Source: a virus
IMG/VR virus record: IMGVR_UViG_3300025012_000043
Coordinates: 48,590-112,589 of that record
DNA: 64,000 bases
Direction: 5' to 3' (one strand)
Both the position numbers and the translations under genes were made by a program. Below are positions 7,908 to 50,102 of the stretch, in pieces (position 1 is the stretch's first letter; the number at the start of each line of letters is the position of its first letter). The notes under the pieces were generated by a model. The model made no database searches, was not told where the DNA came from, and worked only from the letters and a program-made list of their open reading frames with translations.

Positions 7908-10652
7908 TTATTTGCAGCGACTCCATCCGCAAGCCGAGCACTCTATACACTTTGACATATGCACTACGGGATTTCCACACTCAGGACAAGCTTGTTTATA
8001 TGTAATCGCTGAATCATGTTTATCCTTATTTTGAACCAATTTATTTTTATTCTCTTTTGCTCCTACATGAGTTTCTATCGCCACACATATGGCATCAGAT
8101 AATGATGTAATGGTACGCCCACCCTTATAGAAAGCCGTCTCCCCAGCGGAGATACCACGAAGTTGTTTCGTGATATATTTTGTAGACACACCACACCGCA
8201 TAAGTAACGATACCAACCTACCAAGTGCTTCGGCTTCTGCTGCGATCGGTGACCCGGACCGCCCGGCCTTAATAATAACCTCACACAACCCAATATCATC
8301 TTCATTGACAGTGATTAGTGCGTCACCGAACCCAAAAGGTATCTCATATGTACGACCAGTTGGGGCCTCGATTCTAACTCTTGGCCCAAACCCACCATTC
8401 TGCTCAATTGGTTTGGCCTGTTGTCCGGAAGTCAAAACCTGCACACCCTTTGATCCATCACGATAAATAGTTACACCTTTACAACCAAGTTTATATGATA
8501 AACGATATGCCGCATCAATATCTTCTATTGTTGCGTCCTTCTTCATATTAATAGTCTTACTAATTGAATTACCAACATATTTCTGAAATGCTGCTTGCAT
8601 ACGTACGTGCCACTCGGGAGCAATATCATGTGCAGTAACAAATATATACTTAATATCTTCTGGTATATTCATCTTCTGTACTGATCCATTGTGTTCATTA
8701 AATATGACATCAAATAGATCTGGGATATTTAAATTGCGTCTACGTATTTCCTCATCAAAATCGCCATGCAATTCACTCAATTTTTTATCGCCAAACGCCA
8801 TACGATTATATGCAACGGCGTATAAAGGTTCAATGCCTGATGATACACCAGCAATAAGAGCTATTGACCCAGTTGGGGCAATGGTAGTAACAATTGCATT
8901 TCTGCGGGCCTCACCAATCTTATCTAACTCCCAAGCTGGGAATATGCCTTTCTCTTTGCCTAATTCAATACTGGCTTCAATCGCACGAGTATTAATATAC
9001 CCCATGATATGTTCTGCTTGCTCTAGCCCTTGCATTGAATTATATTGAATCCGCATCTTAATAAGTGCATCAGCAAAACCCATGACACCAAGACCAATCT
9101 TTCTGGTCTTCATGATGGCATCTTTAATCTCTTGAAGAGGTTGTGGGCTAACATCAAGCACAGCATCCAAAAACCTAACAGCCAATGGTATTAACTTATT
9201 TAATTTTTCATAATCCCACTCATAGATAACTACACCTTCTGAATCAACCTTTTTCTTTAGCATAGCAACAAGATTAATAGACCCCAATACACATGATTCA
9301 GAGGGATATAATATTGTCTCACCACAATTTCGCCCAAACACACCACTAGAAACAACAAATTTACCATCTTTTTTGCTCGTTATTATCCCATAATTATGAT
9401 TGTCATCCACAGTTATATTATATACATCATCATATCCATAGAATCCCACTGATTTTACTTTATGATTATAATATTGAACCGCCTCATCTAAGTTTTTATT
9501 ATATTTATATTTATCTCTATGCCTATGTATATTGGCAACACTATTACTATTAAATGGCATTAAACTATCGCCTTCTTTTAACTCCTTAAGTTCTACCTTC
9601 TCACCATTACGCCTAATAAATTTGTGATCTGGTGTCGCAATAACCGTCGAATCGTCATCGAGTGTGAGCTTCCAAACTTCCTTCTTTTCTCCCGTAAGCC
9701 TAGGATTTTTGCCCCATTTGATCTCTACCTGTCCATTCTCCAAATTACGTGAATACACTGGCACATCATTACCCTCTTCAACTAATTGTCTAATACTAAC
9801 CGCATTACGTCCATCAGCAACGGCAATTAGTGTATCTCCAACGACACATGGGTTTGATGCTCGCAAAATCCCAAGCGATGGCGTTGGATTGTCACGATTA
9901 ACTCTATCAATCCACAATACACCTGGGTCACCAATACGCCACGCCATCGACACAATCTTATCCCATACTTCTTTGGCATCTAATTCTCCGACTTTCTCTT
10001 TATTACCATAGACAGGAAAATATAAATTATATTTCTTACCCTCGTCTCTTGCCTTCATAAATTCATCGGTAACAGCAACTGAAATATTCATATTCTGCGC
10101 AGCACCAGAATGCTTCATATTAATAAATTCAAGAATGTCTGGATGATGGACAGATAAAATACCCATATTGGCTGATGGTCTAATACCACCTTGATCAACT
10201 ACTGACATTGCATCAGCATAAATTTTAATAAACTGAACAACACCACGAGTCTTATATCCGGTTGACTTAATAATAGTATCTCGTGGTCTAATATTAGACC
10301 AGTCCATCCCGACACCACCACCAGCCTTTTGAATTAAGGCAGCCTTGCGATAAGTACTAAAAATATCATCTAATGAATCCTGGACATCCAACACAAAGCA
10401 CGCTGGATAGGAACATCCATTCCCAGTACCAGCGTTTACTAATGTTGGGGTATTTGGTAAAAATTCTAGATTGGCCATCATGTTAGTATATGATTCAACC
10501 AATTCTTCTTTCTTCTTCTTGGGAAGCTCTTCACAACTGGCTATATCCTTAGCTACCCGTGAAAACAATTCCTCTGGCGTTTCATATGTAGACCCCTTTT
10601 TACGAAGGTACCTTCTACGCAGTACCGTAAGAGCATTTTGGCTTAAGTGCAT
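7908..10652 (-). CDS. nrdJ: Adenosylcobalamin-dependent ribonucleotide reductase (class II) with mini-intein
   Basis: Reduces ribonucleotides to deoxyribonucleotides with a B12-generated thiyl radical. The precursor is 914 residues; removing a 174-residue intein (269-442) leaves 740. The exteins show the family motifs: NTPTLVNAG, the redox cysteine in YPACFVLD (C85), the active-site NPCGE interrupted by the intein so that the radical cysteine becomes C443, the partner cysteine in SESCVLGSINL (C454), and APTGSIALIAG. A C-terminal zinc ribbon (CPECGNP ... CSACGWSRCK) holds the shuttling cysteines. No N-terminal ATP cone is evident. Start ATG 10652 is preceded by GGGAG. It works with dUTPase, the nucleotide kinase and the deaminase to supply dNTPs. 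Confidence 0.96.
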   Translation of the reverse strand: MHLSQNALTVLRRRYLRKKGSTYETPEELFSRVAKDIASCEELPKKKKEELVESYTNMMANLEFLPNTPTLVNAGTGNGCSYPACFVLDVQDSLDDIFSTYRKAALIQKAGGGVGMDWSNIRPRDTIIKSTGYKTRGVVQFIKIYADAMSVVDQGGIRPSANMGILSVHHPDILEFINMKHSGAAQNMNISVAVTDEFMKARDEGKKYNLYFPVYGNKEKVGELDAKEVWDKIVSMAWRIGDPGVLWIDRVNRDNPTPSLGILRASNPCVVGDTLIAVADGRNAVSIRQLVEEGNDVPVYSRNLENGQVEIKWGKNPRLTGEKKEVWKLTLDDDSTVIATPDHKFIRRNGEKVELKELKEGDSLMPFNSNSVANIHRHRDKYKYNKNLDEAVQYYNHKVKSVGFYGYDDVYNITVDDNHNYGIITSKKDGKFVVSSGVFGRNCGETILYPSESCVLGSINLVAMLKKKVDSEGVVIYEWDYEKLNKLIPLAVRFLDAVLDVSPQPLQEIKDAIMKTRKIGLGVMGFADALIKMRIQYNSMQGLEQAEHIMGYINTRAIEASIELGKEKGIFPAWELDKIGEARRNAIVTTIAPTGSIALIAGVSSGIEPLYAVAYNRMAFGDKKLSELHGDFDEEIRRRNLNIPDLFDVIFNEHNGSVQKMNIPEDIKYIFVTAHDIAPEWHVRMQAAFQKYVGNSISKTINMKKDATIEDIDAAYRLSYKLGCKGVTIYRDGSKGVQVLTSGQQAKPIEQNGGFGPRVRIEAPTGRTYEIPFGFGDALITVNEDDIGLCEVIIKAGRSGSPIAAEAEALGRLVSLLMRCGVSTKYITKQLRGISAGETAFYKGGRTITSLSDAICVAIETHVGAKENKNKLVQNKDKHDSAITYKQACPECGNPVVHMSKCIECSACGWSRCK
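9327..9848 (-). mobile_element. Mini-intein in the NrdJ active-site motif
   Basis: The intein starts at Cys269 (CVVGDTLIAVADG, block A), has the TxxH-type block B (ATPDHKF), block F (YDDVYNITVDDNHNYG) and ends VFGRN before extein Cys443. At 174 residues it has no room for a homing endonuclease, so it is a splicing-only mini-intein. The insertion splits the N-P/C-G-E active site, a classic intein site in reductases. The penultimate residue is Arg instead of the usual His. Confidence 0.92.
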
Positions 10653-10670: not shown

Positions 10671-11126
10671 TTATTCTGAAAATCCCGCTGTACTTCCGAA
10701 ACCATTCTCACCTCGTTCAGTCTTGGGCAATTCATCAACATATTCTATACGATATACAACCGATTGATGTAGCACTAACTGCGCCAGTCGGTCTCCCCTA
10801 TTAACCACTACATCATATTTATTGGGATTCAATGCAAACACAAGCAAAGCGCCAGTAAAGCCCTCATCTATTGTCCCATCCATAATAAGTAACTTCTTTT
10901 TAGCAAATGTTGAACTACGAGGTCTGATTGATGCCCACGTTCCCCAGGGCAATTTTATACTAATTCCAGTTGGGATATTTATCATACCACCACTCGGGAC
11001 AATAATTTTCTCTTCTTCAATACATACAACCAAGTCTAAACCTATATCACCTTCTCGGGCTGGCTTTAATACCGGGGGTATAAATGCCGCATTATCTAAT
11101 ACTTTTACCTGTAGCCTATTGCTCAT
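10671..11126 (-). CDS. dut: dUTP diphosphatase (dUTPase)
   Basis: Hydrolyses dUTP to dUMP, keeping uracil out of DNA and feeding dTMP synthesis. All five trimeric dUTPase motifs are visible: GDIGLDL (1), RPRSSTF (2), DGTIDEGFTGALLV (3, catalytic Asp), RGDRLAQLVL (4) and RGENGFGSTA (5, P-loop-like). About 151 residues from ATG 11126, the usual size. That start is chosen because GGAGGAGAG lies just upstream; an earlier in-frame ATG at 11144 overlaps the previous gene more. It overlaps the deoxyribosyltransferase-like gene by 11 bases and is followed by nrdJ. Confidence 0.95.
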   Translation of the reverse strand: MSNRLQVKVLDNAAFIPPVLKPAREGDIGLDLVVCIEEEKIIVPSGGMINIPTGISIKLPWGTWASIRPRSSTFAKKKLLIMDGTIDEGFTGALLVFALNPNKYDVVVNRGDRLAQLVLHQSVVYRIEYVDELPKTERGENGFGSTAGFSE

Positions 11127-11628
11127 TAAACTCTCCTCCTTCACAAATATTCAATGACTCACCAAGCGTAAACTCCTCTGTGAGCTCTATAAAATTTTCA
11201 GCATTTATCTGCACAATCTTATTATTTAAAATATTCCCTAATTCTCTATAATTAGTAATCCATCTAGTATTAAATTGTTTGGCGACCCATTTCATATATA
11301 CTGATATCTTTACATCTGCGTCCGCGCACAAAATGACCGATTGATGTAATTTGTTTTTATTATCTATACACCACGAAACCTCTAACCACGTACCAACAGT
11401 TGGTATTCCATTGATATAAACTACAACAATGTTGGCCCTTTCTAAGGCCAAACGATTAACATCAACTATATAATCTGGGTCCACATCACCCATTGGTATA
11501 AATGCCCTGCCTGGCATAAATAATGTAACATTTTGGTCCTTGTTAACTAAATTGTTAATTACATCATAATAAGCCAATTTATCGGTATTATTATCAACAT
11601 TCCCCGCACAATATACAGAGACTGACAT
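11116..11628 (-). CDS. Nucleoside 2-deoxyribosyltransferase-like protein
   Basis: 170 residues with the layout of the deoxyribosyltransferase / Rcl superfamily: N-terminal VYCAGNVDNN strand-loop, a middle ALERANIVVVYINGIPTVGTWLEVSWC segment carrying the substrate-binding and catalytic-like Glu (TWLEVSW), and a C-terminal helical part. Family members cleave or exchange the base on deoxynucleosides or deoxynucleotides. Here it sits between a nucleotide kinase and dUTPase, so a salvage or pool-editing role is likely. The sequence does not separate transferase from hydrolase. GGAGGAG precedes ATG 11628. Confidence 0.65.
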   Translation of the reverse strand: MSVSVYCAGNVDNNTDKLAYYDVINNLVNKDQNVTLFMPGRAFIPMGDVDPDYIVDVNRLALERANIVVVYINGIPTVGTWLEVSWCIDNKNKLHQSVILCADADVKISVYMKWVAKQFNTRWITNYRELGNILNNKIVQINAENFIELTEEFTLGESLNICEGGEFNEQ

Positions 11629-12180
11629 TTACTCCTCCATCATCCTAAGTAGTGTCATCACCCTATCAACCTCTGCCGAAGTATTCCCATTAATTAGTGA
11701 CTCTAAAAACTTAATTTTATCGTGTCTAAGCATATTGAAACATATGTCTCTAATTTGTTGCATATTTGTTTCATCCTTAGTAATCCTCTTCATTATTACT
11801 TCAGCAGTATCATAATCATCACGATTCCTTTTAATTAAGCGCCCAATCCGTTTAATCGCTGGCGCATCAATATAGACCACGCTCCATAAATATGCCTTGA
11901 GGTTCTTGCTAATCCAGGTAACCTGTCCCTCTGTCCTAGGAACTCCATCAACCAATATAATTTCCCTATTCGTTCTATTAATGCGATCACTGATCCCTCC
12001 CATGATAGCATCATCATTATAATAAAGATCACCATTAGCCAGATCCTTATGTGAATCAGCAAGACTTCTAACTATATCGCCAGATGAAATAAATTCTGCC
12101 CCAACTATGGCTGATACTTGTTTAGAAATGGTAGTCTTACCCGAACCAGCCGGACCGATTACCCAGAGAATTCGTCTCAT
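11629..12180 (-). CDS. Adenylate-kinase-like nucleotide kinase
   Basis: P-loop kinase of 183 residues. Walker A is GPAGSGKTT (residues 9-17). SSGDIVR matches the NMP-binding TGD-like motif, and DGVPRTEGQ corresponds to the FPRT nucleotide-binding motif of adenylate kinase. The lid (RLIKRNRDDYDTAEVIMKR) is short, as in the lidless class. It phosphorylates a nucleoside monophosphate using ATP; which one is not evident. Next to reductase, dUTPase and, further on, a PurZ-type enzyme, a (d)AMP or aminoadenine monophosphate role is possible but inferred. Confidence 0.8.
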   Translation of the reverse strand: MRRILWVIGPAGSGKTTISKQVSAIVGAEFISSGDIVRSLADSHKDLANGDLYYNDDAIMGGISDRINRTNREIILVDGVPRTEGQVTWISKNLKAYLWSVVYIDAPAIKRIGRLIKRNRDDYDTAEVIMKRITKDETNMQQIRDICFNMLRHDKIKFLESLINGNTSAEVDRVMTLLRMMEE

Positions 12181-20830: not shown

Positions 20831-21004
20831 TCATTCTAGTTTAAATACCATAATAAAAGAAGTGACACTATTGAGTGCCCTAATTGTGTTCTGCATCATG
20901 CCAACTACTTCCCATCCTTGAAATAGATAGTCATCCACATAATCAGTAAGTACATATCTAAATAAGAATCGTTCTGGATAATCATGCAATTCTTGATATA
21001 TCAT
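20831..21004 (-). CDS. Hypothetical protein, 57 aa
   Basis: Frame MIYQELHDYPERFLFRYVLT... ending MVFKLE, overlapping the helicase 3' end by 23 bases. The YLFQGWEVVGMMQ segment resembles the GWE-V core of small DUF4177-like proteins. It has no clear ribosome-binding site, so it may depend on translational coupling. Confidence 0.5.
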   Translation of the reverse strand: MIYQELHDYPERFLFRYVLTDYVDDYLFQGWEVVGMMQNTIRALNSVTSFIMVFKLE

Positions 21005-22400
21005 CTATATATTCTGTACTAATTTTTTGTGGTTTTAAAAATATTTTTTCATTATGTTTTATATGTTTCTTAAATACTGGATGTTCATCGAACAAATGAA
21101 CAACAATTGCTTTTTCCTTATCTGGGTGTAATCGGATAATTCTGCCAATTAGCTGCTGGCTATCCTGCGTATCGTGTGCTATCACTACCGCTGAACACTT
21201 AGGTATGTCTATACCCTCTTTACATAGTGTTGAAATAACAAGCTCAATATCCCCATTCCTAAATTTATCAAATAGGGCCACCCTATTATAAGTTTCTGCA
21301 TATATTTCAACAGCATTTGGCAACAATGCTTTAATATTATTGCCATGTTCTATGTTTCTTACGGAAATTAGTGTAGAATGACCATTAGATGTCAATTGGG
21401 CTGCGGCGTTTGCTACCAACTCAGTTCTCTCTTTATATGAATCAATGTGAAATTCTCGCAATGTATTATATACTTTACAATTTAATAAATGTGATTTATT
21501 TGGTGGTATATATCTTGGTGGGACTTTAAGATAATAAACATGTGGGCGTACTAGCCATCCTTCATTGATGAGTCTGCGCATGTCAACTGAATAATTAATT
21601 GGCCCTGACGCTGCTTCAAGATCTAGGTCTTTTCCATCGAGTCTTCGCATAGTGGCCGTAAAAAACGCCGCGAATCGCGCATTTTTAAAACCACTTGAGA
21701 GATCAAAAATCGTTTTTGCCGCGATCCGGTGGCACTCGTCAACAATAAGGAATCTCGTATCTTCAACAAGCGTAATTTTATCACTCCTATTTGGCGACGC
21801 ATCTTCCTTGTCATAAATTCCCTCCAAAGATTGTACCATGGCTACCGTAATATCTTTTGGATCACAGATTGAATCACCAACTATGCCAATTTCAGTATTG
21901 AGCATTTCTTTTAATACTTTAACTGTCTGATACAATAAAACCGTACTATTTGTTAACACTGTCGTCTTTACACCAACTTTGGCTATTGCATCCCCCATAA
22001 TGATTGTCTTGCCACCACCAGTAGCAATTTCGTGTGCAGTCTTACGACGTTTTAAAATGTCATCAACTGCAGCAATTTGATAATCCCGTAACTTAAATTT
22101 GGCACTTATCGGTAATGGGCTGCCAATAATATCAGCCCCAATATCATCATTTTCTATATGTGAAAGTATGTTATAAGATCGAAGGATTGTTTGTACTTTA
22201 TTTAATAGGCCAACACGGAAAATCATTGTTTTACTAAACCGATAAATTGGGTGTGGGCGATAACCATACTGTCTAGAAGAATAAGCTGCTTGTTTGGAAA
22301 TATATGAGCATTCTTTTCTTAATTCATTAAATACATTCTCCGGTATTTCATCAAGTATTTGACCATAGACATTATCAACCTTAATCCGGATTATGTTCAT
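20982..22400 (-). CDS. SF2 DNA helicase (UvsW/XPB-like)
   Basis: 472 residues with the SF2 motif set: LRDYQ before motif I, Walker A ATGGGKT, DECH box, TATM motif III, LVISTLCKEGIDIP (motif V) and QQLIGRIIRLHPDK (motif VI). The N-terminal 100 residues are phage-specific. UvsW-type helicases process stalled forks and recombination intermediates and unwind R-loops. Lying with a nuclease, recA and an ssDNA-binding protein, it fits a recombination module. Its start overlaps the upstream gene by 20 bases. Confidence 0.92.
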   Translation of the reverse strand: MNIIRIKVDNVYGQILDEIPENVFNELRKECSYISKQAAYSSRQYGYRPHPIYRFSKTMIFRVGLLNKVQTILRSYNILSHIENDDIGADIIGSPLPISAKFKLRDYQIAAVDDILKRRKTAHEIATGGGKTIIMGDAIAKVGVKTTVLTNSTVLLYQTVKVLKEMLNTEIGIVGDSICDPKDITVAMVQSLEGIYDKEDASPNRSDKITLVEDTRFLIVDECHRIAAKTIFDLSSGFKNARFAAFFTATMRRLDGKDLDLEAASGPINYSVDMRRLINEGWLVRPHVYYLKVPPRYIPPNKSHLLNCKVYNTLREFHIDSYKERTELVANAAAQLTSNGHSTLISVRNIEHGNNIKALLPNAVEIYAETYNRVALFDKFRNGDIELVISTLCKEGIDIPKCSAVVIAHDTQDSQQLIGRIIRLHPDKEKAIVVHLFDEHPVFKKHIKHNEKIFLKPQKISTEYIDDISRIA

Positions 22401-22758: not shown

Positions 22759-23120
22759 TATTCTCCAACTCCTATATTATTCCATTTCTGTGCTGGATTT
22801 TTAGATTGTACCACAGTAAGTACCCTCGATACTGCATTATAATTCATTTCAGCACATCGAAGAGCTCGATACAATATATCTATTTTTACATTCGTTTCCG
22901 TTGATTTATTCTTAGATTTAATCGCCATCATCTTGGCGTGTAATTGTGAAAATAGATTATACTCATTAGCAAAATGAGGCAACAGCGGTGCTATAACCTC
23001 AATATTATCAGACTGAGGTATGGACTTCATGGGATAAATAAATTCTACCAAATCATTGGCATCGACATTCTCAATATTTACTACACTAACATTAAGTTTA
23101 GCCTGTGGCTCTGGAATCAT
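22758..23120 (-). CDS. Hypothetical protein, 120 aa
   Basis: Acidic N-terminal part (VVNIENVDANDLVEFIYP) and a helical middle (NLFSQLHAKMMAIKSK ... ILYRALRCAEMNYNAV). Start overlaps the nuclease gene by 23 bases; stop abuts the next gene. Position between a nuclease and a helicase suggests a DNA-metabolism partner. No family recognised. Confidence 0.65.
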   Translation of the reverse strand: MIPEPQAKLNVSVVNIENVDANDLVEFIYPMKSIPQSDNIEVIAPLLPHFANEYNLFSQLHAKMMAIKSKNKSTETNVKIDILYRALRCAEMNYNAVSRVLTVVQSKNPAQKWNNIGVGE

Positions 23121-23634
23121 TAACGGCTCCTAAAAATATTGGAAATGGTATCGCTATAAGCTCATCACCCATTGCTTCAAAGTCCCATGGTAATTCATTG
23201 TCATCTATTACCACTCTAATAGAAGACTTCAAAACCTTATGTATTACGTTTTGTTTAGATTTTGGGTACTTGCCCTCTAGTAATTCCTCAATACGCATTA
23301 TTACTACCATATTTTCATCTTGACCATATTTGGGTTTTATAATTAATACAGGAATCCTGTTTGATATCGCAGCTTCCTTTTTTATCCCTTGCCACCATTC
23401 ATTCTTTATTGAAAACAGAGGGTAAAACTTGCGTGGGTGTTTCTTTCTAAATGATCTGGGAGCGTAGTCACGTAACTTACACTCGATTAAAAATGTAGCT
23501 GTCTTTATATCACCGAGCATACTAGAGTCCTTAAATCTAGACCCCTTACTAGATTGTCCATATTGACGGCAACTACCCAATAAACTAGCTATATGACGCT
23601 CCATACCAGCCCACGTGCTCTTAGATGTAGCCAA
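23098..23634 (-). CDS. PD-(D/E)XK nuclease / Holliday-junction resolvase-like
   Basis: 178 residues. The stretch YGQSSKGSRFKD, MLGDIKTATFLIECKLRDYA gives the D-x(n)-E-C-K signature of the PD-(D/E)XK fold, with a following helix and NRIPVLIIKPK strand. Such phage enzymes cut branched DNA or remove host restriction products. Next to recA, helicase and ligase homologues, resolvase is the best guess. Family assignment by motif only. Confidence 0.65.
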   Translation of the reverse strand: MATSKSTWAGMERHIASLLGSCRQYGQSSKGSRFKDSSMLGDIKTATFLIECKLRDYAPRSFRKKHPRKFYPLFSIKNEWWQGIKKEAAISNRIPVLIIKPKYGQDENMVVIMRIEELLEGKYPKSKQNVIHKVLKSSIRVVIDDNELPWDFEAMGDELIAIPFPIFLGAVNDSRATG

Positions 23635-23668: not shown

Positions 23669-24760
23669 TCACTCAGATATTACAGTATTTTCAGCCTCTC
23701 CTAAGAGCCCATTAGTATCTCTATTAATTAGAGCTTGTACACATTTAGCCCGTACCTCTTCCAATAATCCCAAATCAGTTACAAGCAACTCTTTAAATTT
23801 GTTCTCTCCCATTGCCTTCTTATCCCCAAATGAGAACCAACTACCAGTAGTCTTAATAATGCCGCACATTTTCGCCACACCAAATGTATCATCAACAATA
23901 TCAACACCAGTGTCTAGGTTGACAATGAACTCTGCTGGCTCATTCACACGTGCCACTTTATTCTTCATTACTCTATACGCTACCTTGATAGCGACTTCCT
24001 CTTCCACCATCTTAGTAGGAGTAAGTGGCACTTTACGTCTAATACTCTCAGTTTTACGCGCATACATTTCATATGAAATAAAAAACCCTGCCGTATTACC
24101 GCCAGCAGCCTTCTTATTAGATCCATAGGTCACCATTGGGTTTGCGCGTTCTTGGGAGATGAAGAGAACGAAACATGCCGGGTTCATATTGAGATATGAG
24201 TTGACTTTTGGTAACATTTCAGCCATTAACTGTGCTGATGCAGCCTTAAGTCTACCTTGGTCAACCGTTGCTGCTTCCATCTTTACTTTTGGCACTAAGG
24301 CAGGTATTGAATCTAAAATGATAAGATTATACTCCCTACTCTTGATCAATTCAATAAGGATATCAATCCATTCCTCCCCAAACAAGGGATCAAGTAGAAC
24401 ACCATCCTTATCTACCCTTTCATCTTTCGATGAAATAATGAACAGTTTGGCTGGATCGATACCCATATTCTTAGCAAATTTCATATCAAATGTTCCCTCA
24501 ACGTCAAGGAACGCTACCTTACCATTGTCCTTCTGAACTCTTGTGGCAAAACAAGTGGATAGTAGGGTCTTACCCGATTGCTTCTCACCCCACACTAATC
24601 CCATTCTGCCACCAAGAAATCCATTAGTACCAAGGGCTAAGTTCAAACTCAACACCCCTGAATCAAGTAAGATGGGTAGACGCTCTGTCCGGTCTACACC
24701 GGACATCATGGTCGTCGCTCCGTAGCGAGAATTAATTACATCTACAACGCTTTTTGCCAT
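23669..24760 (-). CDS. recA: RecA/UvsX-type recombinase
   Basis: 363 residues, similar to bacterial RecA. Walker A is GEKQSGKT (58-65). VAFLDVEGTFD is the adenine-pocket / motif 1a region, NLIILDSIPALVP is Walker B, and the L2-like loop region reads NKKAAGGNTAGFF. It forms filaments on ssDNA and catalyses strand exchange in recombination-dependent replication and repair. GGAGG lies before ATG 24760. The neighbouring ssDNA-binding protein, nuclease and SF2 helicase form a recombination cluster. Confidence 0.93.
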   Translation of the reverse strand: MAKSVVDVINSRYGATTMMSGVDRTERLPILLDSGVLSLNLALGTNGFLGGRMGLVWGEKQSGKTLLSTCFATRVQKDNGKVAFLDVEGTFDMKFAKNMGIDPAKLFIISSKDERVDKDGVLLDPLFGEEWIDILIELIKSREYNLIILDSIPALVPKVKMEAATVDQGRLKAASAQLMAEMLPKVNSYLNMNPACFVLFISQERANPMVTYGSNKKAAGGNTAGFFISYEMYARKTESIRRKVPLTPTKMVEEEVAIKVAYRVMKNKVARVNEPAEFIVNLDTGVDIVDDTFGVAKMCGIIKTTGSWFSFGDKKAMGENKFKELLVTDLGLLEEVRAKCVQALINRDTNGLLGEAENTVISE

Positions 24761-24835: not shown

Positions 24836-26131
24836 TTAAAGCTTCGCTAATGCTTCAACTAACGCATTTAGCCTTTCTTCTGACCACGTTGTAATTGACA
24901 ATTCAGTAATGTCCTTATACGGACCATGCACAGTAGCTAGGAAATCAATCATATCCTTATCCGGCTTACCGGCAAATTTAATCTCAAATGTTTTGTTAAT
25001 CAAATCAACACGGCTGGTTGAAGTTTGACTTGTGCCACCAGTTAGCTTAGAGTAAGTAACCTTCATTCCGGGTTCTGGCTCTCCAGTAGGCTCATCAGCC
25101 TGCCTTTCACTAGGCTCTGGATTGTTTACTGCATTGATGAGCAACTGGATATTACCATTAGCACACAGATCAGAAATCCAAGCTGCTCCATTCTTAATTT
25201 CCTGCAAATTTGATGTATTGGCTAACCATTTAAAATAATCAAACTCATTTGTATCAATAAGATGACCAAACGATCTACCAGTAAAACGCTTACCGACATC
25301 TACAATTAATGCGCGAACAGCAGTATATTTATTGATATCATCTAGAGTTGGAAATCCGCCACCAAGAGCCTTGGGCTGTTCGCCCACAGGAAGGGCTGCT
25401 GATTCCCCCTCGCCAGAGATTTTACCAGTAGAGACAAATTCCCATGCCTTTACTGGATCAACGTTTTCAAATGCAAGGATCTGTTCAAATGAAATCATAC
25501 TATAATCGACATCCTCATTAAATACTGATGGATCCTGGGCCTCAGCTTTATAAGTAACCTGTTGCCCATTCTTCTCCCGCCATATGAGAATATCACGCCC
25601 AGCCAAAGAATTCTTAGCAGTAATGATCCGCACAAATTCACTACGAAGTTCGTTACCAAACTTGAGTACCATTGGTAAATTGGCTTCATAATTCCACAGT
25701 GTGATAGTGTGCTGCGGCGTCATGCCAAGATGACTATCAACCTCAACACCACCACGCTTCCGTTTCTGGTCCCTAGGGGTCAACATATTAAACATTGGGT
25801 CTAACTTACCACACAATCCTGCGGCACATTCACGCTTTGCACCACGCGCAGTACCCTGAATATTACACAAGAAAGTACGATATTTACGGACAGTCTGTCG
25901 CGTTACTGGGTTTGTAACACTGGGTACTCTATGATACCACCCCGATACACATTCAGACTCAACTAGGTCAGTGACACCGGCACTACATGCACATGTAACA
26001 TTGGGCCAATTAGGATAATATCCATCCTTACCACATTTCTTACACTTAAACGGCATAAGAATACGAACTTTATATTTCTTATTATCTTCAATCTTCATAA
26101 ACCCAAAACGGGTATCTTTCCAGGCGCACAT
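24836..26131 (-). CDS. Probable ssDNA-binding protein (gp32-like)
   Basis: 431 residues. N-terminal zinc-ribbon-like cysteines (FKCKKCGKDGYY ... CACSAG) are followed by a large domain with RTFLCNIQG, DPMFNMLTPRD and HTITLWNYEANLPMVLKFGNELR. A Gly/Pro/Ser-rich linker and a C-terminal helical region complete it. The codon use is more GC-rich than the neighbours, as expected for an abundant protein. Placement next to recA and a hairpin over its ribosome-binding site support an ssDNA-binding role, but homology is not certain from motifs. Confidence 0.5.
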   Translation of the reverse strand: MCAWKDTRFGFMKIEDNKKYKVRILMPFKCKKCGKDGYYPNWPNVTCACSAGVTDLVESECVSGWYHRVPSVTNPVTRQTVRKYRTFLCNIQGTARGAKRECAAGLCGKLDPMFNMLTPRDQKRKRGGVEVDSHLGMTPQHTITLWNYEANLPMVLKFGNELRSEFVRIITAKNSLAGRDILIWREKNGQQVTYKAEAQDPSVFNEDVDYSMISFEQILAFENVDPVKAWEFVSTGKISGEGESAALPVGEQPKALGGGFPTLDDINKYTAVRALIVDVGKRFTGRSFGHLIDTNEFDYFKWLANTSNLQEIKNGAAWISDLCANGNIQLLINAVNNPEPSERQADEPTGEPEPGMKVTYSKLTGGTSQTSTSRVDLINKTFEIKFAGKPDKDMIDFLATVHGPYKDITELSITTWSEERLNALVEALAKL

Positions 26132-26527: not shown

Positions 26528-27709
26528 TTATTCATTATAAATATCAAAATGCACTGTGTCTTCCTTTAAAGGACCAGTTGATCCCCATAGAATTGGAATA
26601 TTATACTCTTCTTCAAATGCCCTAATCCAAGCTTTAGATTCTTGTGAAAGATCTTCGGCTTTGTTAACTTTATAATCTTTGACATTTAAATAATCAAGGA
26701 AGCACAAACCGATACCAGTGAACCGATTGATCATTGCAGTCTTCTTAAATTGTTCATGAGAAAATTCAAATACCCGCCTAACCCTTTTTGTAACTGTTGT
26801 GATCTCCTTAAAAGAGCCTTCTGGTGCACCAGCCCTTCTTTCAACCTCTGCCCACGTAATTTCCTGAGAACCCATAGAACCACTATCACCAGCCACCCTA
26901 ATAGGATAAGGACGAATAACGCCAATAATGTCAGTAACCACTAGTGGTGAAATACCGGCCTCACTTACCCATCCTCCAGCGTTGGTGTCCCTTGATGTAG
27001 TTTTTGGATATAAACCGTGGTGCAATGAAAGGACTGATCCCTGCGTCCCCTCCAATAGCACCGACTCACCATCGTCGATTAACTGATTAATCATTTCTGT
27101 CGTATCACAACAGAATTCCTTAATCCCTGGCCAATCTTTAGCTAAAACCACTGGTCCACGTGGTGATGCACCACGCCAAATCTTATCTGCCAATGCAGCA
27201 CCACACCCTTCACGCGTTGATCCAACCATCTTCCATAGGTCATTAGCACTTAACTTATCACATTTTGTGCACGGATCAACGATTTCTGGAAGTCCCTGCT
27301 TAATATCCTGCCATGCCTTACATTCCATTGGCTTATGAGCATAATCACAAGGCTCAGCCTGTCCATATTCGGCCAACGTATGTTTAGGCTCAATAATAAC
27401 CACGTTTGGATGAATAAAAACACGTTTTTCAATGTTTGGATCGTATTTCTTAATCATTTCAATCTCTTTAAAGAATAACTCTGGAATGATCATCCCACCG
27501 GCACCAATGATCAACTTGGCATCCATCCGGGTCCACCCACAAGGGATTGTCTGCATGACGACTTTATCGCCATTATAATAAATTGTGTGTCCAGCGTTAG
27601 GAGCCCCAGTTCTCACGTGTACACTATAGTCGTCAGCAATAACATTGGCAATCTTGCCCTTGCCTTCTGATCCAGCGGCCCCTCCCACCAATACTGTTAC
27701 TTTAGACAT
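26528..27709 (-). CDS. purZ: PurZ-type adenylosuccinate synthetase (2-aminoadenylosuccinate synthetase)
   Basis: 393 residues of the PurA fold. The GTP/IMP loop reads GGAAGSEGKGK: Ser14 replaces the catalytic Asp of PurA, the diagnostic change of PurZ. The catalytic His is kept in PNAGHT (His41). Further PurZ-like motifs are EGTQGSVLSL, YPKTTSRDT (PurA has SSNTT) and TTVTKRVRRVFEFS. PurZ joins aspartate to dGMP, the first step to 2-aminoadenine (Z) nucleotides; host PurB then removes fumarate. The NAGG after TSRDT is PurA-like, so it may belong to a deep PurZ branch. Strong Shine-Dalgarno (TAAGGAG) before ATG 27709. Plain PurA activity cannot be excluded without biochemistry. Confidence 0.85.
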   Translation of the reverse strand: MSKVTVLVGGAAGSEGKGKIANVIADDYSVHVRTGAPNAGHTIYYNGDKVVMQTIPCGWTRMDAKLIIGAGGMIIPELFFKEIEMIKKYDPNIEKRVFIHPNVVIIEPKHTLAEYGQAEPCDYAHKPMECKAWQDIKQGLPEIVDPCTKCDKLSANDLWKMVGSTREGCGAALADKIWRGASPRGPVVLAKDWPGIKEFCCDTTEMINQLIDDGESVLLEGTQGSVLSLHHGLYPKTTSRDTNAGGWVSEAGISPLVVTDIIGVIRPYPIRVAGDSGSMGSQEITWAEVERRAGAPEGSFKEITTVTKRVRRVFEFSHEQFKKTAMINRFTGIGLCFLDYLNVKDYKVNKAEDLSQESKAWIRAFEEEYNIPILWGSTGPLKEDTVHFDIYNE

Positions 27710-28025: not shown

Positions 28026-28241
28026 TTACTCTCCCTCTCCTTCTTCTGATGTCTCTTCTTCTATATCCCCTGAATCAATCTCAAACGCAATATAGGTTTT
28101 ACCACTCTCCTCGTCTACAATAATCTGTGCCTCTGGTCCCTCCTCATTAGCCTCCTCTGTAGGCTCTTCCTCTGAAGCCACTACCGGAACTGGCTCACCT
28201 GGGTCTATCGCAGTTTCAAACTTGTCATCATCACTAGGCAT
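28026..28241 (-). CDS. Very acidic hypothetical protein, 71 aa
   Basis: MPSDDDKFETAIDPGEPVPV followed by Glu-rich low-complexity sequence. ATG 28241 has GGAGG upstream inside the end of the ligase-like gene. Strong negative charge suggests DNA mimicry or disorder. Function unknown. Confidence 0.6.
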   Translation of the reverse strand: MPSDDDKFETAIDPGEPVPVVASEEEPTEEANEEGPEAQIIVDEESGKTYIAFEIDSGDIEEETSEEGEGE

Positions 28242-30055
28242 CAATTACTACCTCCATTCGCTTGTTCAACAAGCTTATTAAACTCCTCTTCTGAATATAT
28301 CGCAACATCTTTGTGTGTTGACAACTGTCTAACAGTATTTACTATAGCACTATTACCAAATTTGCCATAAATAAATCCAGTAATATATGGAGCAAACTGT
28401 GAAACAACCCTACCGCCATATTTATTTATAATGTTTTCATATTTAATTCTATCTCTATCATAGAGTAAACCATCGATAAAAAAGGTTTTATTATATAGTG
28501 GATGGTCAAGGGATTGCTTGAAATATTTAAACATTGTTCGGACAAATTGAATTTTATTGGTCTCCATAAATCCTAAAAGTTTACTGATGGTGATACTATC
28601 AAACCCAATACGTGATAATGTTGTATCGGTAAAAATGTGCTTGGTAATTAAATTTATATACATACTATTAAAATTTTTCATGATCTCGTTGCATTCTTTG
28701 ATATTTAAAAATGGAATAATGATATTTAAAAATTCACCAGGCATCTCTCTACTTTTTTGAACTCCCTCAAATATTAATTTGTATTCATTATCCACTATCT
28801 CTATTGAATCTATGACTGTATAAATATCATTTAAGTTAATTATATCATGTCTGTGTAAAAAATCGGCCATCACATATTTATCAACTGTCGGACAAAATTT
28901 GTCAATCCACACCTGAATACTATTTAATACGACTGTTGGGCACCTAGGATTAATACAATATATATTGCCATTACTAATATCAACACTATGCTTACATTTT
29001 GGACACGAAGATGTGATGAAGGGTGTTTTATTACTCCCATACTTTTTGTCTAAAACCAACACATCATTTACATTTGTACCAGTAAACATATCACCAACAC
29101 AATAATTACCAATATCCTTAGTAGTAAAATTGGGGAAAGTTTTGTAAAGTGTATAATTTGATTTATCTATTGTTACATATTGGTCTTTAGTATCAAACTC
29201 ACCACCAAAATTAAATGCAACTACTGGTATGATACGTACTTTACCACCATCAATCATCGTATCCCATGAGATATTAAGAACCGCCAGCAAATTATTGGCC
29301 CCTATATTAGTGGTTACACCCCATTGGTTCAATGTTTTCATAGATAAAAGTTGAATCATTTCCATACTACTATATGATGTCAATATCTTATTACATTTGT
29401 ATGGTAAATTGCCACCGCCAATCATTAACTTAGCACTTTCTATAGTACGCGTCCATTTGGGTATTGTCGTATTCAGCATAGTCGCTGTCTTAAACCCAAC
29501 ATTTCTAAATGTCTCAAATAGATCATCAATAGTATCTGCCACGGACTGAGTAAAAGAAGCATAGGTAACAATAAAATCACATTCTAATATCCGTTCATCT
29601 GGAATTGGTGAAGTAAGTAATTTATACAATTCGAGCTCTGGTAATTTAGACAAAATCGCCCCGTGGATATACCCATCAGCAGCTACCATCCGTCCAAGGG
29701 GCATATTATTCAAAAAATAAATGTTATGTGTTATATCTACATACAAACCCAGACTAACAACCCACAATGCACTAACTATTTGTTTATTCCTAATCTCTAA
29801 TCGTATGTTTGGCACATCAGGTAAAAATATTACAGACAAATAATCTGAATATTTACCAGATAATTTATAATTGATGGTTGACCAATCCGATAACTCAGTA
29901 ATATTATTAATATCATTAAATATATTACTATGTTCCATCTTGCCTTCTGGCAATACAAACTTTTCACCCCTAGCTAAATAATGATTGGGCAAAACGCTTG
30001 CTAATTTATCAACATCCTCAGTTTTAACAATATCATACAATTCTTTATTTGTCAT
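28241..30055 (-). CDS. Divergent NAD-dependent DNA ligase homologue (LigA-like)
   Basis: About 604 residues from ATG 30055 (GGAGGG upstream). Domain order fits LigA: an adenylation-like region with NYKLSGKY in place of KxDG and LYVDITHNI resembling GEDVTHNI; an OB-like part (VRIIPVVAFNF, YCVGDMFTGTNV); a four-cysteine zinc finger (CPKCKHS ... CINPRCP); a helix-hairpin-helix zone; and a C-terminal BRCT domain (KTFFIDGLLYDRD, KYGGRVVSQF). The nucleophilic Lys appears kept, but the Asp of KxDG is Ser. It may be an active but diverged ligase, a subunit working with the 30045-31034 protein, or an inactive scaffold. Confidence 0.6.
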   Translation of the reverse strand: MTNKELYDIVKTEDVDKLASVLPNHYLARGEKFVLPEGKMEHSNIFNDINNITELSDWSTINYKLSGKYSDYLSVIFLPDVPNIRLEIRNKQIVSALWVVSLGLYVDITHNIYFLNNMPLGRMVAADGYIHGAILSKLPELELYKLLTSPIPDERILECDFIVTYASFTQSVADTIDDLFETFRNVGFKTATMLNTTIPKWTRTIESAKLMIGGGNLPYKCNKILTSYSSMEMIQLLSMKTLNQWGVTTNIGANNLLAVLNISWDTMIDGGKVRIIPVVAFNFGGEFDTKDQYVTIDKSNYTLYKTFPNFTTKDIGNYCVGDMFTGTNVNDVLVLDKKYGSNKTPFITSSCPKCKHSVDISNGNIYCINPRCPTVVLNSIQVWIDKFCPTVDKYVMADFLHRHDIINLNDIYTVIDSIEIVDNEYKLIFEGVQKSREMPGEFLNIIIPFLNIKECNEIMKNFNSMYINLITKHIFTDTTLSRIGFDSITISKLLGFMETNKIQFVRTMFKYFKQSLDHPLYNKTFFIDGLLYDRDRIKYENIINKYGGRVVSQFAPYITGFIYGKFGNSAIVNTVRQLSTHKDVAIYSEEEFNKLVEQANGGSN

Positions 30056-31034
30056 AGAACCCTCCATAAATTTGTCCGCAAAGTTTCTCAATTTTAACTC
30101 TAAACTGTGGCGTATATGAATTACTTCTATTTAATAAATTAATATACAAATCATATACAGACATAGTGTCTAACATTTTAGATAACACCTTATAGTATAA
30201 AGGGTCAATAGTTTTAAATGCCACTCTCACTATACTGGTGATCTTATCATTTGGCCGTTCTTGTAACATTTTAATATGAATATCTGTAACTATTTCGTAT
30301 AATTTCCTCATCTCCATATCAACAACAAAATCTAATAATATGTCATTACGTTTTTGGTTTAATTGATTAACTCCTGCAAATGGTATGTCATCACCATTCA
30401 ATATCGCACATTTATCAATATCTGAATACCATATAGCCGGATATGCAACAATAGAGGACCGCTTGATAGTTTTGTGATCCAACATACCAATCTCACTATT
30501 CAATATGGCTACTGCTTTCTTAATCATCCCAACCTGTGTCTTTATTGGCTCACCATGTGTATATACCATTCTCATTATTCTGGTCTGATCGCACATCAAG
30601 ATATTTACTATATTAGCTTCGGTGTCTTTATTAATTATACCACTTAATATATATTCATTTGGTAAAAATGTGTACTTTTCTGGGACCATACACCTAATAA
30701 TACCATTAACATATAATATATATATATTTTCAGTATATTTACTAAATATATCATTTAAGCACCTTACTGCAAGATCATTAGATAATGATGTTAACAAGGA
30801 ATAAGTGGTAGGTCGATGAGTAAAAAGACGAGAGATGATGGGGAGTAAATAAGGGGGGACATTAAATTGAAGTTTTCTTTGTTCAGTTTTACCACCAATA
30901 TTAAAATATCCGATCGTAATATCAACCTTATCAAATGATATGAAATTAACATATACTGGGGGGACCAGTAATTCACTAAGCCCCCCAACCTTAGCATATT
31001 TAATCGCTTCCCGTAGAGATGTAAATTCAGCCAT
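30045..31034 (-). CDS. Hypothetical protein, 329 aa, possible ligase partner
   Basis: Unrecognised protein ending 11 bases inside the ligase-like gene. It has a beta-rich N-terminus (VYVNFISFDKVDITIGYFNIGG) and a helical C-terminus. Phage T5 splits its DNA ligase into two genes, and the adjacent placement invites that comparison, but I see no ligase motif here. The start follows a tnpB remnant and has no clear Shine-Dalgarno. Confidence 0.6.
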   Translation of the reverse strand: MAEFTSLREAIKYAKVGGLSELLVPPVYVNFISFDKVDITIGYFNIGGKTEQRKLQFNVPPYLLPIISRLFTHRPTTYSLLTSLSNDLAVRCLNDIFSKYTENIYILYVNGIIRCMVPEKYTFLPNEYILSGIINKDTEANIVNILMCDQTRIMRMVYTHGEPIKTQVGMIKKAVAILNSEIGMLDHKTIKRSSIVAYPAIWYSDIDKCAILNGDDIPFAGVNQLNQKRNDILLDFVVDMEMRKLYEIVTDIHIKMLQERPNDKITSIVRVAFKTIDPLYYKVLSKMLDTMSVYDLYINLLNRSNSYTPQFRVKIEKLCGQIYGGFYDK

Positions 31035-38617: not shown

Positions 38618-39883
38618 TTATTCTCGTACCGGTATGACTTCACCGAATGGCACCTTACTCGCACCTCCTACAACCACCCATAATACTGGATAGTCTGGTT
38701 TTTTAGAGGGGAATGAACCAAAAGTGTCTGTTAAATATACCAATACCTTTGGCTTTATCCTCTCTTTTGTTACACGCTTAAACACTGGCCGAAAATCTGT
38801 CCCACCACCTCCTTTAAATTTAATTTTGCCAGGCAATTGCCACACATTCAGTGAATTGGCCTCAATAAATTCATGTACATTGGCATCACATGTCATTATG
38901 TAGGTACGTTTAGATAAATGCGCCATACCAATTAGTTCAGCAAGAAACCTTCGTAGCATGTTGTCATCTATTGAACCACTGGTATCAATGGCTGCAACTA
39001 TATCACCAACCTGTGTACCATATGATGATGGCATGAAAAACCCAATAGCATGAGACTTCTTTGAAGGATAAAGTTTAGTACGTTGATATCCACGACACTT
39101 GGATTCCATTAAATTCTTTAGTCTCACCCACCAATCAACCTGTGGTTCCAATATCTCTTTGATCAATCTATCCAGTCCAGCGGGTAATTTACCCTGCCCA
39201 GCGGCCCTGGCAACTTGTGTAGCTTTTACAATGGCATGTTTAACCTTTGTATTTTCATGATCTTCTCTCTGTTTCTGAATATGTGTATCAAATCCTGAAG
39301 GATTGCCATGTATAGGACATTTATTATCTCCGTCACTACCATCACCATCACCATCATCAGATACACTCTGGCTATCCTTGCTATTCCCACTGCCACCACA
39401 ATTACATTTTATTTTTTTAGCTTTCTCCAGTAATACCTTATAAACTTCCTCAGCAACCACCTCATCTAATTTTATATCTTTCATAGATTGGATTTTGACA
39501 AGTGCGGCATCATTCCACAAAGATATCTCTGTATCTCGTTGATTGAATGATATACTGTTCTTCTCTAGTAGGTGATTATCAACGATGTCCGCTGCGATAT
39601 TAAATAATTGCTTGTCTTTATTCATCCCCCTTTGCATGTGATCCATAATGACATGAACTATTTCATGGCATAATGCAAATTTGATATTTTCAATGGATCC
39701 CAGCAACTTTATTCTATTTGCATTCCAATATAAATTATATCCATCTGTTCCCATGATGGATACTGATTCTGTTTCTATGATTGGAAGAGACAATAATATC
39801 GTGGCCCAAAATGGATGATCTCTTAACAGTTGGATCTTTGCTGCACTCATCATCTCTTTGGCATCAGTGACAACGGTTACCAT
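38618..39883 (-). CDS. VWA-domain protein with metallopeptidase-like N-terminus (DUF2201 type)
   Basis: About 421 residues from ATG 39883 (CAGGAGGG upstream). N-terminal part contains CHEIVHVIMDHM, an HExxH zinc motif, typical of DUF2201. A low-complexity Asp/Gly/Ser linker with C-x-C cysteines follows, and the C-terminus is a VWA domain with MIDAS residues (AAIDTSGSID ... GGGGTDFRPV ... LTDTFG). MoxR ATPases and VWA proteins act together as chaperone-like pairs assembling or remodelling protein complexes. The MoxR partner is directly upstream. The target is unknown. Confidence 0.85.
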   Translation of the reverse strand: MVTVVTDAKEMMSAAKIQLLRDHPFWATILLSLPIIETESVSIMGTDGYNLYWNANRIKLLGSIENIKFALCHEIVHVIMDHMQRGMNKDKQLFNIAADIVDNHLLEKNSISFNQRDTEISLWNDAALVKIQSMKDIKLDEVVAEEVYKVLLEKAKKIKCNCGGSGNSKDSQSVSDDGDGDGSDGDNKCPIHGNPSGFDTHIQKQREDHENTKVKHAIVKATQVARAAGQGKLPAGLDRLIKEILEPQVDWWVRLKNLMESKCRGYQRTKLYPSKKSHAIGFFMPSSYGTQVGDIVAAIDTSGSIDDNMLRRFLAELIGMAHLSKRTYIMTCDANVHEFIEANSLNVWQLPGKIKFKGGGGTDFRPVFKRVTKERIKPKVLVYLTDTFGSFPSKKPDYPVLWVVVGGASKVPFGEVIPVRE

Positions 39884-39907
39884 TAACCCTCCTGGGGCAT
39901 AAAGTGG

Positions 39908-49157: not shown

Positions 49158-50102
49158 TCACCTCCCTATGAATGAATGGTTAAGTGCACGATTCATTATA
49201 TGTTCTGATACTGGGCCACAAATACTATCAACTTTCTCACATTCTTTTACTATGTTAGTCCTACTGATGATCGGGTTATCAGTGCAAATACTAACTGGGA
49301 TTAAATGCTCAAGAAAAATTTTAATTGGGTGTACAATATCTTGTGCTACCGCACCAGTATGATAATTACTAGTAACACAACATTCAATTAATATCTGGTC
49401 TCTAGCCATCCTCTTCATTAATTCTTTATCTCTGATGGCTGAGCACCCATGCCCAATACGTTCTACACCAAGAATATCAATCGCTTCCCAGATATTCTCT
49501 GGTGGGCCATCCTCACCAGCATGACACGTTAAATGTAACTTACCAATACGTGCCAGATCAAACGCTTCTTTAAAAAGCCTGGGTGGGAATAGACGTTCCG
49601 CTCCCGCAAGATCAAACCCAACTACTCCGCATCCAGTATGCAGATGTTGTGCCTCAGACGAAGCAGCGCGTGCTAATATTTTAGCTATATGTGGTCCATG
49701 ATGCTTCATTGAGATGATGATTAATCCAAGTTTCATATCTTGGTGTGATTCTTTAAATTTATTCATACCATCTAAGATTGCGCGTGTGGTTTGTCGTACT
49801 GAAAGATCGGCAAATGTATGAATGATTGGTGACCACCTTAATTCCAAAGTACGTACACCAATATTATATGCATCACGTGCTATCACCCCTATGGCGTCTT
49901 TTATATTCCCATAAAATTGCGTCACCCACATTGGTGTATGGAAACGATTCAAATAATCGAGTAATGTTTCATTATCTGTGGCATATATCATTTCTTCAAA
50001 TTTCTCAAACTCTTCACATGGCTGTAACCCATGTTTCTTTAATCTTTCCCACATAAATGTGGTCGGTATTGAACCATCCACATGCTGATGAAGTTCTATC
50101 AT
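49158..50102 (-). CDS. add: Adenosine deaminase family enzyme
   Basis: 314 residues with the complete ADA metal and catalytic set: ELHQHVDGS (H5, H7), CHAGEDG (H194, catalytic E197), RIGHG (H218), CVTSNYHTGAV and CTDNP (D275). It deaminates (deoxy)adenosine to (deoxy)inosine; ADA enzymes also accept 2,6-diaminopurine nucleosides. In a PurZ-bearing phage it might lower deoxyadenosine, recycle purines or interfere with host signalling; these roles are inference. The start overlaps the next upstream gene by 4 bases. Confidence 0.93.
   Translation of the reverse strand: MIELHQHVDGSIPTTFMWERLKKHGLQPCEEFEKFEEMIYATDNETLLDYLNRFHTPMWVTQFYGNIKDAIGVIARDAYNIGVRTLELRWSPIIHTFADLSVRQTTRAILDGMNKFKESHQDMKLGLIIISMKHHGPHIAKILARAASSEAQHLHTGCGVVGFDLAGAERLFPPRLFKEAFDLARIGKLHLTCHAGEDGPPENIWEAIDILGVERIGHGCSAIRDKELMKRMARDQILIECCVTSNYHTGAVAQDIVHPIKIFLEHLIPVSICTDNPIISRTNIVKECEKVDSICGPVSEHIMNRALNHSFIGR

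What the first reader, a model, noticed from the sequence alone, without database searches (positions are those of the whole stretch)
26528..27709. PurZ-type synthetase implies a 2-aminoadenine (Z) DNA pathway
The nucleotide loop is GGAAGSEGKGK with Ser14 where PurA has the catalytic Asp, His41 is kept in PNAGHT, and TSRDT and TTVTKRVRRVF match PurZ rather than PurA (seen directly; motif knowledge from the aminoadenine phage literature). PurZ acts on dGMP to start Z synthesis, so this phage may carry Z in place of A in its DNA. NAGG after TSRDT is PurA-like, hinting at an intermediate branch.
Basis: partly seen in the sequence, partly recalled or inferred. Interest (0 to 1): 0.92.

Follow-up and report, generated by a model that had tools for sequence, protein, structure and literature searches.

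The report
PurZ phage with bacterial-type replicative polymerase
A large uncultured phage carries the enzyme that starts making "Z" (2-aminoadenine), plus genes that probably strip ordinary adenine from the nucleotide pool, but copies its DNA with a bacterial-type polymerase III instead of the Pol I enzyme of almost all known Z phages, so it may be a new route to DNA in which A is replaced by Z.

Summary
The gene is real: complement(26528..27709), 393 aa, ribosome-binding site present, dN/dS far below 1. It has Ser14 in place of PurA's catalytic Asp and PurZ-type loops. In trees it falls outside bacterial and archaeal PurA (100/99) and inside a supported group with characterised PurZ (phiVC8, SH-Ab 15497), in its own lineage of large phages (100/97). 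Asp339 at the donor-base position suggests GTP use, as in PurZ0, so it is neither textbook PurZ nor PurZ0. Ser14 alone proves little: hundreds of cellular homologues share it.

Context makes the Z reading convincing. An adk-NDT-dut cassette at 10671-12180 encodes a DmtZ-like protein that keeps the catalytic residues of DmtZ. A relative keeps helicase-adenosine deaminase-adk-NDT-dut as one tight cluster. DatZ, MazZ and Pol I (DpoZ) are not found. The only DNA polymerase found is a family C Pol III alpha, as in all five phages of this lineage and in Bacillus phage vB_BpsS-140, which shares the gene order. BpsS-140 DNA was reported uncut by DraI although it has 21 sites, but EcoRI cut it.

Z in the virion, dGMP activity and Z incorporation by Pol III are not shown. 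Verdict: PurZ reading supported; a new variant of the Z-DNA pathway is likely.

The parts
26528..27709 (-). purZ-type succino-(2-amino)deoxyadenylate synthetase, 393 aa; S14, H41, G163-S164-T165, R271-V272-A273-G274-D275-S276-G277 loop with W286, D339 at donor-base position; lineage-specific insert about 113-152 containing CxxC
   Evidence: AlphaFold2 model pLDDT 91, PDB matches all adenylosuccinate/deoxyguanylosuccinate synthetases
11116..11628 (-). DmtZ-like nucleoside deoxyribosyltransferase-family protein, 170 aa; Y6, V11, D12, P39, N58, G79, E83, W114 correspond to Ghobes DmtZ Y6, V11, D12, P57, N77, G99, E103, W124
   Evidence: AlphaFold2 pLDDT 72 with PDB best matches 2-deoxyribosyltransferases, MilB, DNPH1
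10671..11144 (-). dUTPase-fold protein (candidate DutZ-like dATP/dGTP pyrophosphohydrolase); ORF overlaps the NDT gene; its true start may be internal to the listed ORF
   Evidence: PF00692 E=1.4e-23; alignment with DutZ; NDT-dut order also in G001 and G023
11629..12180 (-). adenylate-kinase-like (d)NMP kinase; candidate dZMP kinase
   Evidence: PF00406/AAA_17, TIGR01351 E=1e-14 below cut-off; conserved next to NDT and dut
49158..50102 (-). adenosine deaminase; candidate deoxyadenosine drain
   Evidence: PF00962 E=7e-60, TIGR01430 210 of 216.55 bits; in 4 of 5 lineage records, 0 of 7 other purZ records, 8 of 50,697 phage records
1892..5464 (-). DNA polymerase III alpha subunit (family C, PHP domain), 1190 aa; the only DNA polymerase found in the 112.6-kb record
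7908..10652 (-). ribonucleotide reductase large chain with an intein-splicing domain
   Evidence: PF02867, PF00317, PF14890
12220..14865 (-). primase-helicase (DnaG zinc ribbon, Toprim, DnaB C-terminal domain)
20982..22400 (-). UvsW-like helicase of the conserved module
23098..23634 (-). RusA/resolvase-like nuclease of the conserved module
23669..24760 (-). RecA/UvsX-like recombinase downstream of purZ in the conserved module
24836..26131 (-). conserved protein between purZ and recA, no family match; detectable homologues in G001, G023, G024 and BpsS-140
28241..30091 (-). NAD-dependent DNA ligase-like protein upstream of purZ
   Evidence: phrog_3869 E=1.9e-6; also in L009

Best explanation
The gene encodes a PurZ-type enzyme that most likely joins aspartate to dGMP, probably using GTP, to make N6-succino-2-amino-dAMP. 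Host PurB would convert this to dZMP. The phage's adk-like kinase and host kinases would make dZTP, and the phage's Pol III alpha (DnaE) would place Z opposite T. The dUTPase-like protein (dATP/dGTP to dAMP/dGMP), the DmtZ-like protein (dAMP to adenine, perhaps moving deoxyribose 5-phosphate to Z base) and the adenosine deaminase (deoxyadenosine to deoxyinosine) would drain adenine deoxynucleotides and feed dGMP to PurZ. The phage's DNA would therefore contain Z in place of some, most or all A. Shown here by computation: identity of the genes, PurZ-group phylogeny, conserved active-site residues, linkage and conservation of the module, absence of DpoZ/DatZ/MazZ matches in the record. Inferred: substrates, GTP use, nucleotide-pool effect, Z incorporation by Pol III alpha, Z in the virion.
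For: Tree: own five-phage lineage 100/97, grouped with phiVC8/SH-Ab PurZ 96/84, separated from bacterial PurA 100/100 and archaeal PurA 100/99. PurZ-type features: S14, GST163-165, inserted RVAGDSG...W loop in place of PurA RVGxGPFPTE. DmtZ residues Y6, V11, D12, P57, N77, G99, E103, W124 all kept (functional roles from PMC12884076), NDT fold confirmed, and the only tblastn match in 50,697 phage records is a PurZ0 phage's DmtZ (E=0.007). The NDT-dut pair is conserved although NDT is only 40% identical to its G001 relative; helicase-ADA-adk-NDT-dut are consecutive in G023. ADA in 4 of 5 lineage records but rare in phages. Pol III alpha in 5 of 5 lineage records, BpsS-140 and two others, with no Pol I in any of the eight. 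Syntenic cultured relative BpsS-140 has a Ser-type PurZ, a DmtZ-like gene and dut, and was reported uncut by DraI (PMC6483233) despite 21 TTTAAA sites.
Against: No activity or base-composition data. [quoted passage not shown] The Foldseek best match of the model is archaeal PurA (TM 0.93 by target) ahead of PurZ0 and PurZ (0.81-0.84), and phmmer likewise. Cellular Ser-type proteins of unknown function lie near the PurZ crown, and the node uniting PurZ and PurZ0 is weak (82/57). The dUTPase-like protein cannot be told from ordinary dUTPase. I know of no phage Pol III shown to use dZTP.
Confidence: 0.74

Rival explanations
1. It is a phage-borne archaeal-type PurA whose Asp changed to Ser without changing the job: it would make adenylosuccinate from IMP to boost adenine nucleotides.
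For: Best fold and PDB-sequence match is P. horikoshii PurA; Asp339 as in PurA.
Against: Tree places it beyond P. horikoshii PurA with 100/99. PurZ-type loop and GST motif, not PurA RVGxGPFPTE and GTT. The module's accessory genes would be expected to destroy dATP/dAMP/dA, opposite to a need for more adenine.
Confidence: 0.07
2. It belongs functionally to the cellular Ser-type family (unknown role, often beside DUF7002 and an IrrE/M78 protein) and makes a modified nucleotide that is not put into phage DNA.
For: Hundreds of bacterial and archaeal stretches encode Ser-type homologues; the 80 kept are 32-41% identical, some as close by path length as known PurZ.
Against: The main cellular clade, with DUF7002 neighbours, is a separate supported group (100/99). 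The window gene sits in a replication module with DmtZ-like/dut genes known from Z phages.
Confidence: 0.1
3. A sub-case of the best explanation: PurZ makes dZTP, but because the polymerase is a Pol III alpha with no known preference, Z is only partly incorporated (mixed A/Z DNA).
For: No DpoZ, DatZ or MazZ match in the record; S-2L PrimPol lacks Z preference and depends on dATP removal (PMC8342488); BpsS-140 DNA resists DraI but is cut by EcoRI.
Against: DutZ/DmtZ-like/ADA genes suggest strong dATP depletion; restriction data are coarse and from a relative.
Confidence: 0.3

Closest known systems
[quoted passage not shown] NF038379)
   Same: Ser at the Asp13 position, GST motif, inserted RV..(x)SG..W loop, common clade 96/84
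   Different: 30-31% identity; Asp339 where these have Asn; about 37-aa insert; no DatZ/MazZ, no DpoZ found in the genome
PurZ0 of Gordonia phages Archimedes/Ghobes and Arthrobacter phage Wayne (7VF6)
   Same: Ser, Asp at the donor-base position, dut and dmtZ in the genome
   Different: Not in the PurZ0 clade; those genomes encode Pol I
DmtZ (NAR 2026, PMC12884076)
   Same: NDT fold, active-site residues, neighbour of dut
   Different: 14-27% identity to known DmtZ; found here outside PurZ0 phages, next to an adk-like kinase
Bacillus phage vB_BpsS-140 (MH884512)
   Same: purZ-recA-UvsW helicase-primase-adk-dut-DnaE gene order, no Pol I, DmtZ-like gene at 29607-30083 annotated hypothetical
   Different: 55 kb versus more than 112 kb; Asn at the donor-base position; no ADA found; PurZ 34% identical; its purA gene is not discussed in its genome paper
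Cyanophage S-2L Z-cluster
   Same: Polymerase not of DpoZ type, so Z use must rely on pool control
   Different: S-2L uses PrimPol, DatZ and MazZ; here Pol III alpha and DutZ/DmtZ/ADA-like proteins

Membership tests
PurZ/PurZ0 (dGMP-aspartate ligase) | Ser in place of PurA catalytic Asp | tested here: met
   S14; Asp in canonical PurA rows
PurZ/PurZ0 (dGMP-aspartate ligase) | Phylogenetic position outside PurA with characterised PurZ/PurZ0 | tested here: met
   node joining PurZ and PurZ0 themselves weak (82/57)
PurZ/PurZ0 (dGMP-aspartate ligase) | PurZ loop insertion after conserved Val (S-2L A242-W250) narrowing the 2'-OH pocket | tested here: met
   V272-A273...W286; role of the loop from PMC8342488
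PurZ/PurZ0 (dGMP-aspartate ligase) | Uses dGMP, not IMP | not testable with these tools
   needs enzyme assay
PurZ proper (ATP-using) | Asn/Gln at the donor-base position (phiVC8 N297, S-2L Q308) | tested here: not met
   D339 in the window protein and its four closest relatives
PurZ0 proper | Member of the PurZ0 clade | tested here: not met
   falls with PurZ, not with Ghobes/Archimedes/Wayne
NCBIfam NF038379 amino_Aden_PurZ | Score over curated cut-off (300 bits) | tested here: not met
   199.9 bits
PurA | Catalytic Asp and position within PurA | tested here: not met
   below all PurA cut-offs
DmtZ | NDT fold with Tyr6/Asn77/Glu103 triad, Asp12, Pro57, Trp124 | tested here: met
DmtZ | Member of the monophyletic DmtZ group | tested here: inconclusive
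   aligned and profile-linked with DmtZ, but no tree was built; identity 14-27% to known DmtZ
DmtZ | dAMP hydrolase / dAMP-to-Z transfer | not testable with these tools
   needs assay
DutZ | dUTPase fold with dATP/dGTP specificity | tested here: inconclusive
   fold family met; 33-40% identity to DutZ, similar to ordinary phage dUTPases
Z-cluster (datZ-mazZ-purZ) | DatZ (HD/YfbR) and MazZ/DUF550 encoded | tested here: not met
   no such Pfam match among the ORFs scanned; the record may be incomplete
DpoZ phages | Family A DNA polymerase | tested here: not met
   no PF00476 in the 112.6-kb record or in four relatives; Pol III alpha instead

The most novel reading that the evidence does not exclude
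A lineage of large phages (100-180 kb), together with cultured Bacillus phage vB_BpsS-140, makes Z-DNA with a bacterial-type family C replicative polymerase and a new adenine-depletion set (DutZ-like, DmtZ-like and adenosine deaminase), showing that Z genomes do not need a DpoZ or PrimPol polymerase.
Probability: 0.5. Interest if true: 0.82.

Novelty: new variant of a known kind. Interest (0 to 1): 0.72.

Why it matters
Z phages described in the held literature copy their DNA with a family A polymerase (DpoZ), S-2L with its PrimPol being the stated exception (PMC8342488). A Z phage that uses a Pol III alpha of the kind that copies bacterial chromosomes would show that the cellular type of replicase can work with Z:T pairs, and would point to control of the dNTP pool, not polymerase choice, as the decisive step. 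It adds adenosine deaminase as a likely new accessory gene, extends DmtZ-like genes beyond PurZ0 phages, and offers a third PurZ lineage, keeping the PurA/PurZ0-type donor pocket, that is useful for the PurA-to-PurZ transition. Because a cultured relative exists (BpsS-140 on Bacillus pseudalcaliphilus), it is directly testable.

Tried and rejected
A single-clade 'DnaE-Z' polymerase: the Pol III alphas of PurZ phages are very divergent, with at least two separate groups (window+G001+G023+G024 100/99; BpsS-140+G025 100/100) and long branches, so no specialised clade can be claimed. Assigning the dUTPase as DutZ by alignment: not decisive. Finding the NDT protein by Pfam or PDB sequence search: nothing at normal cut-offs; only fold and profile show it. 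Profile A1 was too divergent for a collection scan. NDT profile in controls: 0 of 7 Pol III phages (not known to carry purZ) and 0 of 4 ATP-type PurZ phages, but the tool warns that an empty answer without a positive is weak. Defence reading: no PADLOC match for P0001 or P0002. Literature on which enzymes cut Z-DNA (DraI in particular): nothing usable in the held library. In one search the printed column numbers are shifted by two (printed c = residue c+2).

Full report
What is there. The finding's ORF is complement(26528..27709), 393 aa, ATG start with AAGGAG upstream. Pfam, PHROGs and NCBIfam place it in the adenylosuccinate synthetase fold family, with PHROGs naming PurZ, but below NCBIfam's cut-offs for both PurZ and PurA. 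The window is bases 48590-112589 of a 112,589-base uncultured virus record; a capsid-protein match elsewhere in the record (PF25209) fits a tailed phage.

Which enzyme. The closest relative is 84% identical, in a 178-kb virus record, with dN 0.13 and dS 1.76. A profile scan found 359 virus stretches and 415 stretches on bacterial and archaeal chromosomes with Ser-type homologues, so Ser14 alone does not prove a Z pathway. In a 73-row maximum-likelihood tree, and in a 60-row tree that adds archaeal PurA from P. horikoshii (its two aligned segments taken), the window protein forms a five-phage lineage (100/97). That lineage groups with phiVC8/SH-Ab PurZ and BpsS-140 (96/84), lies outside bacterial PurA (100/100) and archaeal PurA (100/99), and is apart from the main cellular Ser-type clade. 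The deeper node that joins PurZ and PurZ0 is weak (82/57). Diagnostic residues agree: S14, G-S-T at 163-165, and the inserted RVAGDSG...W286 loop where PurA has RVGxGPFPTE; in S-2L PurZ the equivalent loop pulls the conserved Val toward C2' of the sugar (PMC8342488).

Donor nucleotide. At the position that reads the donor base (phiVC8 N297, S-2L Q308), the window protein and its four closest relatives have Asp, like PurA and PurZ0; phiVC8, SH-Ab and BpsS-140 have Asn. phiVC8 PurZ is solved with ATP and archaeal PurA with GTP (titles). GTP use by the window enzyme is therefore predicted, and the protein looks like a lineage that kept the older donor pocket. PurZ0 using GTP is from my own knowledge (Tong et al. 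2023); PMC12884076 states the two preferences in the opposite order, which conflicts with the ATP-bound phiVC8 structures.

Accessory genes. 15 kb away is a cassette of an adk-like kinase (11629-12180), an unannotated 170-aa protein (11116-11628) and a dUTPase-fold protein (10671-11144). The 170-aa protein has the nucleoside deoxyribosyltransferase fold by AlphaFold2 and Foldseek (best PDB matches 2-deoxyribosyltransferases, MilB, DNPH1). It keeps Y6, V11, D12, P57, N77, G99, E103 and W124 of Ghobes DmtZ, the residues to which catalysis, dAMP recognition, phosphate contacts and lid are assigned in PMC12884076; two phosphate-contact positions were also compared, of which V98 is kept and Q13 differs. 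Its only tblastn match among 50,697 phage records is the DmtZ of PurZ0 phage Archimedes (E=0.007). A profile of these proteins finds 15 further purZ records not used to build it, 12 of which keep all of Y6, D12, P, N and E, including a 'hypothetical protein' of BpsS-140. It finds none in seven Pol III phages not known to carry purZ or in four ATP-type PurZ phages. The NDT-dut pair is kept in the 178-kb relative though NDT is only 40% identical there. In relative G023, helicase, adenosine deaminase, adk, NDT and dut are consecutive and partly overlapping. Adenosine deaminase occurs in four of five lineage records, in none of seven other purZ records, and in 8 of 50,697 phage records.

Polymerase. 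The window's record has no family A polymerase match; it has a Pol III alpha subunit. The same holds for all five members of the lineage, for G025, G062 and BpsS-140, whereas 33 of the other 42 purZ records tested have Pol I. Gene order purZ-recA-UvsW helicase is shared across the lineage, G025 and BpsS-140, and continues to primase-adk-dut-DnaE in BpsS-140. The Pol III proteins themselves are too divergent to claim one specialised clade. A search of the held literature found no paper that mentions PurZ, phage and DNA polymerase III together, and PMC8342488 states that all Z phages but S-2L have Pol I.

Experimental hint. BpsS-140 is cultured. In its description DraI digested all genomes but BpsS-140, and EcoRI digested all (PMC6483233). 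Its sequence has 21 DraI and 24 EcoRI sites, close to expectation, so the DraI result is not due to missing sites. Z replacing A would fit; EcoRI cutting argues against complete substitution, or for tolerance by EcoRI. PstI and BamHI resistance was general in that study and is uninformative.

Mechanism and confidence. Most likely: PurZ makes succino-aminodeoxyadenylate from dGMP; host lyase and kinases with the phage kinase give dZTP; DutZ-, DmtZ- and ADA-like enzymes remove adenine deoxynucleotides; Pol III alpha inserts Z. PurZ-type chemistry about 0.85, some Z in phage DNA about 0.7, near-complete replacement with Pol III about 0.45. The genes, phylogeny, residues and linkage are shown; substrates and Z in DNA are inferred.

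Noticed in passing
L116-L195 (genome-contig loci); e.g. L128:2533-3312, L128:6031-6723, L158:7584-8174: A large cellular family of Ser-type PurZ-like proteins (median about 535 aa, N-terminally extended) has a recurrent neighbourhood: DUF7002 in 49 of 80 loci, an IrrE/M78-type protein in 32, a YfbR-like HD protein in 10. Function unknown; most of the 15 genomes checked also carry canonical PurA.
   Followed up: partly
L117 (Tissierella sp. P1): Only the Ser-type homologue, and no canonical PurA, was found in this genome; if the assembly is complete, a Ser-type enzyme may serve as PurA there.
   Followed up: no
window 7908-10652: Ribonucleotide reductase large chain interrupted by an intein (PF14890).
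   Followed up: no
window 582-1658: 358-aa ORF; the set of ORFs scanned with it contains one OrfB_IS605 / Cas12f1-like TNB match (TnpB-like), possibly this protein by length (one search does not name the member).
   Followed up: no
G000:C1:16610-33961 (outside the window): A single ORF of 5,783 aa on the minus strand.
   Followed up: no
window 38618-39931 and 39940-40989: DUF2201 VWA/metallopeptidase-like protein next to a MoxR-like AAA ATPase.
   Followed up: no
window 11116-11628 versus L251:250-762: The NDT protein is 95% identical to that of a virus record whose DnaE is 100% identical to the window's, and only 40% identical in the 178-kb relative while PurZ is 84%: it evolves faster than its neighbours.
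   Followed up: partly
L002:31814-35421 (MH884512): BpsS-140 dnaE is split into two ORFs (dnaE_1, dnaE_2) by an apparent frameshift or a true split; the G025 relative also gave two ORFs.
   Followed up: no
PMC12884076: The text assigns ATP to PurZ0 and GTP to PurZ, the reverse of what the phiVC8 PurZ structures with ATP imply; probably a swapped order.
   Followed up: partly
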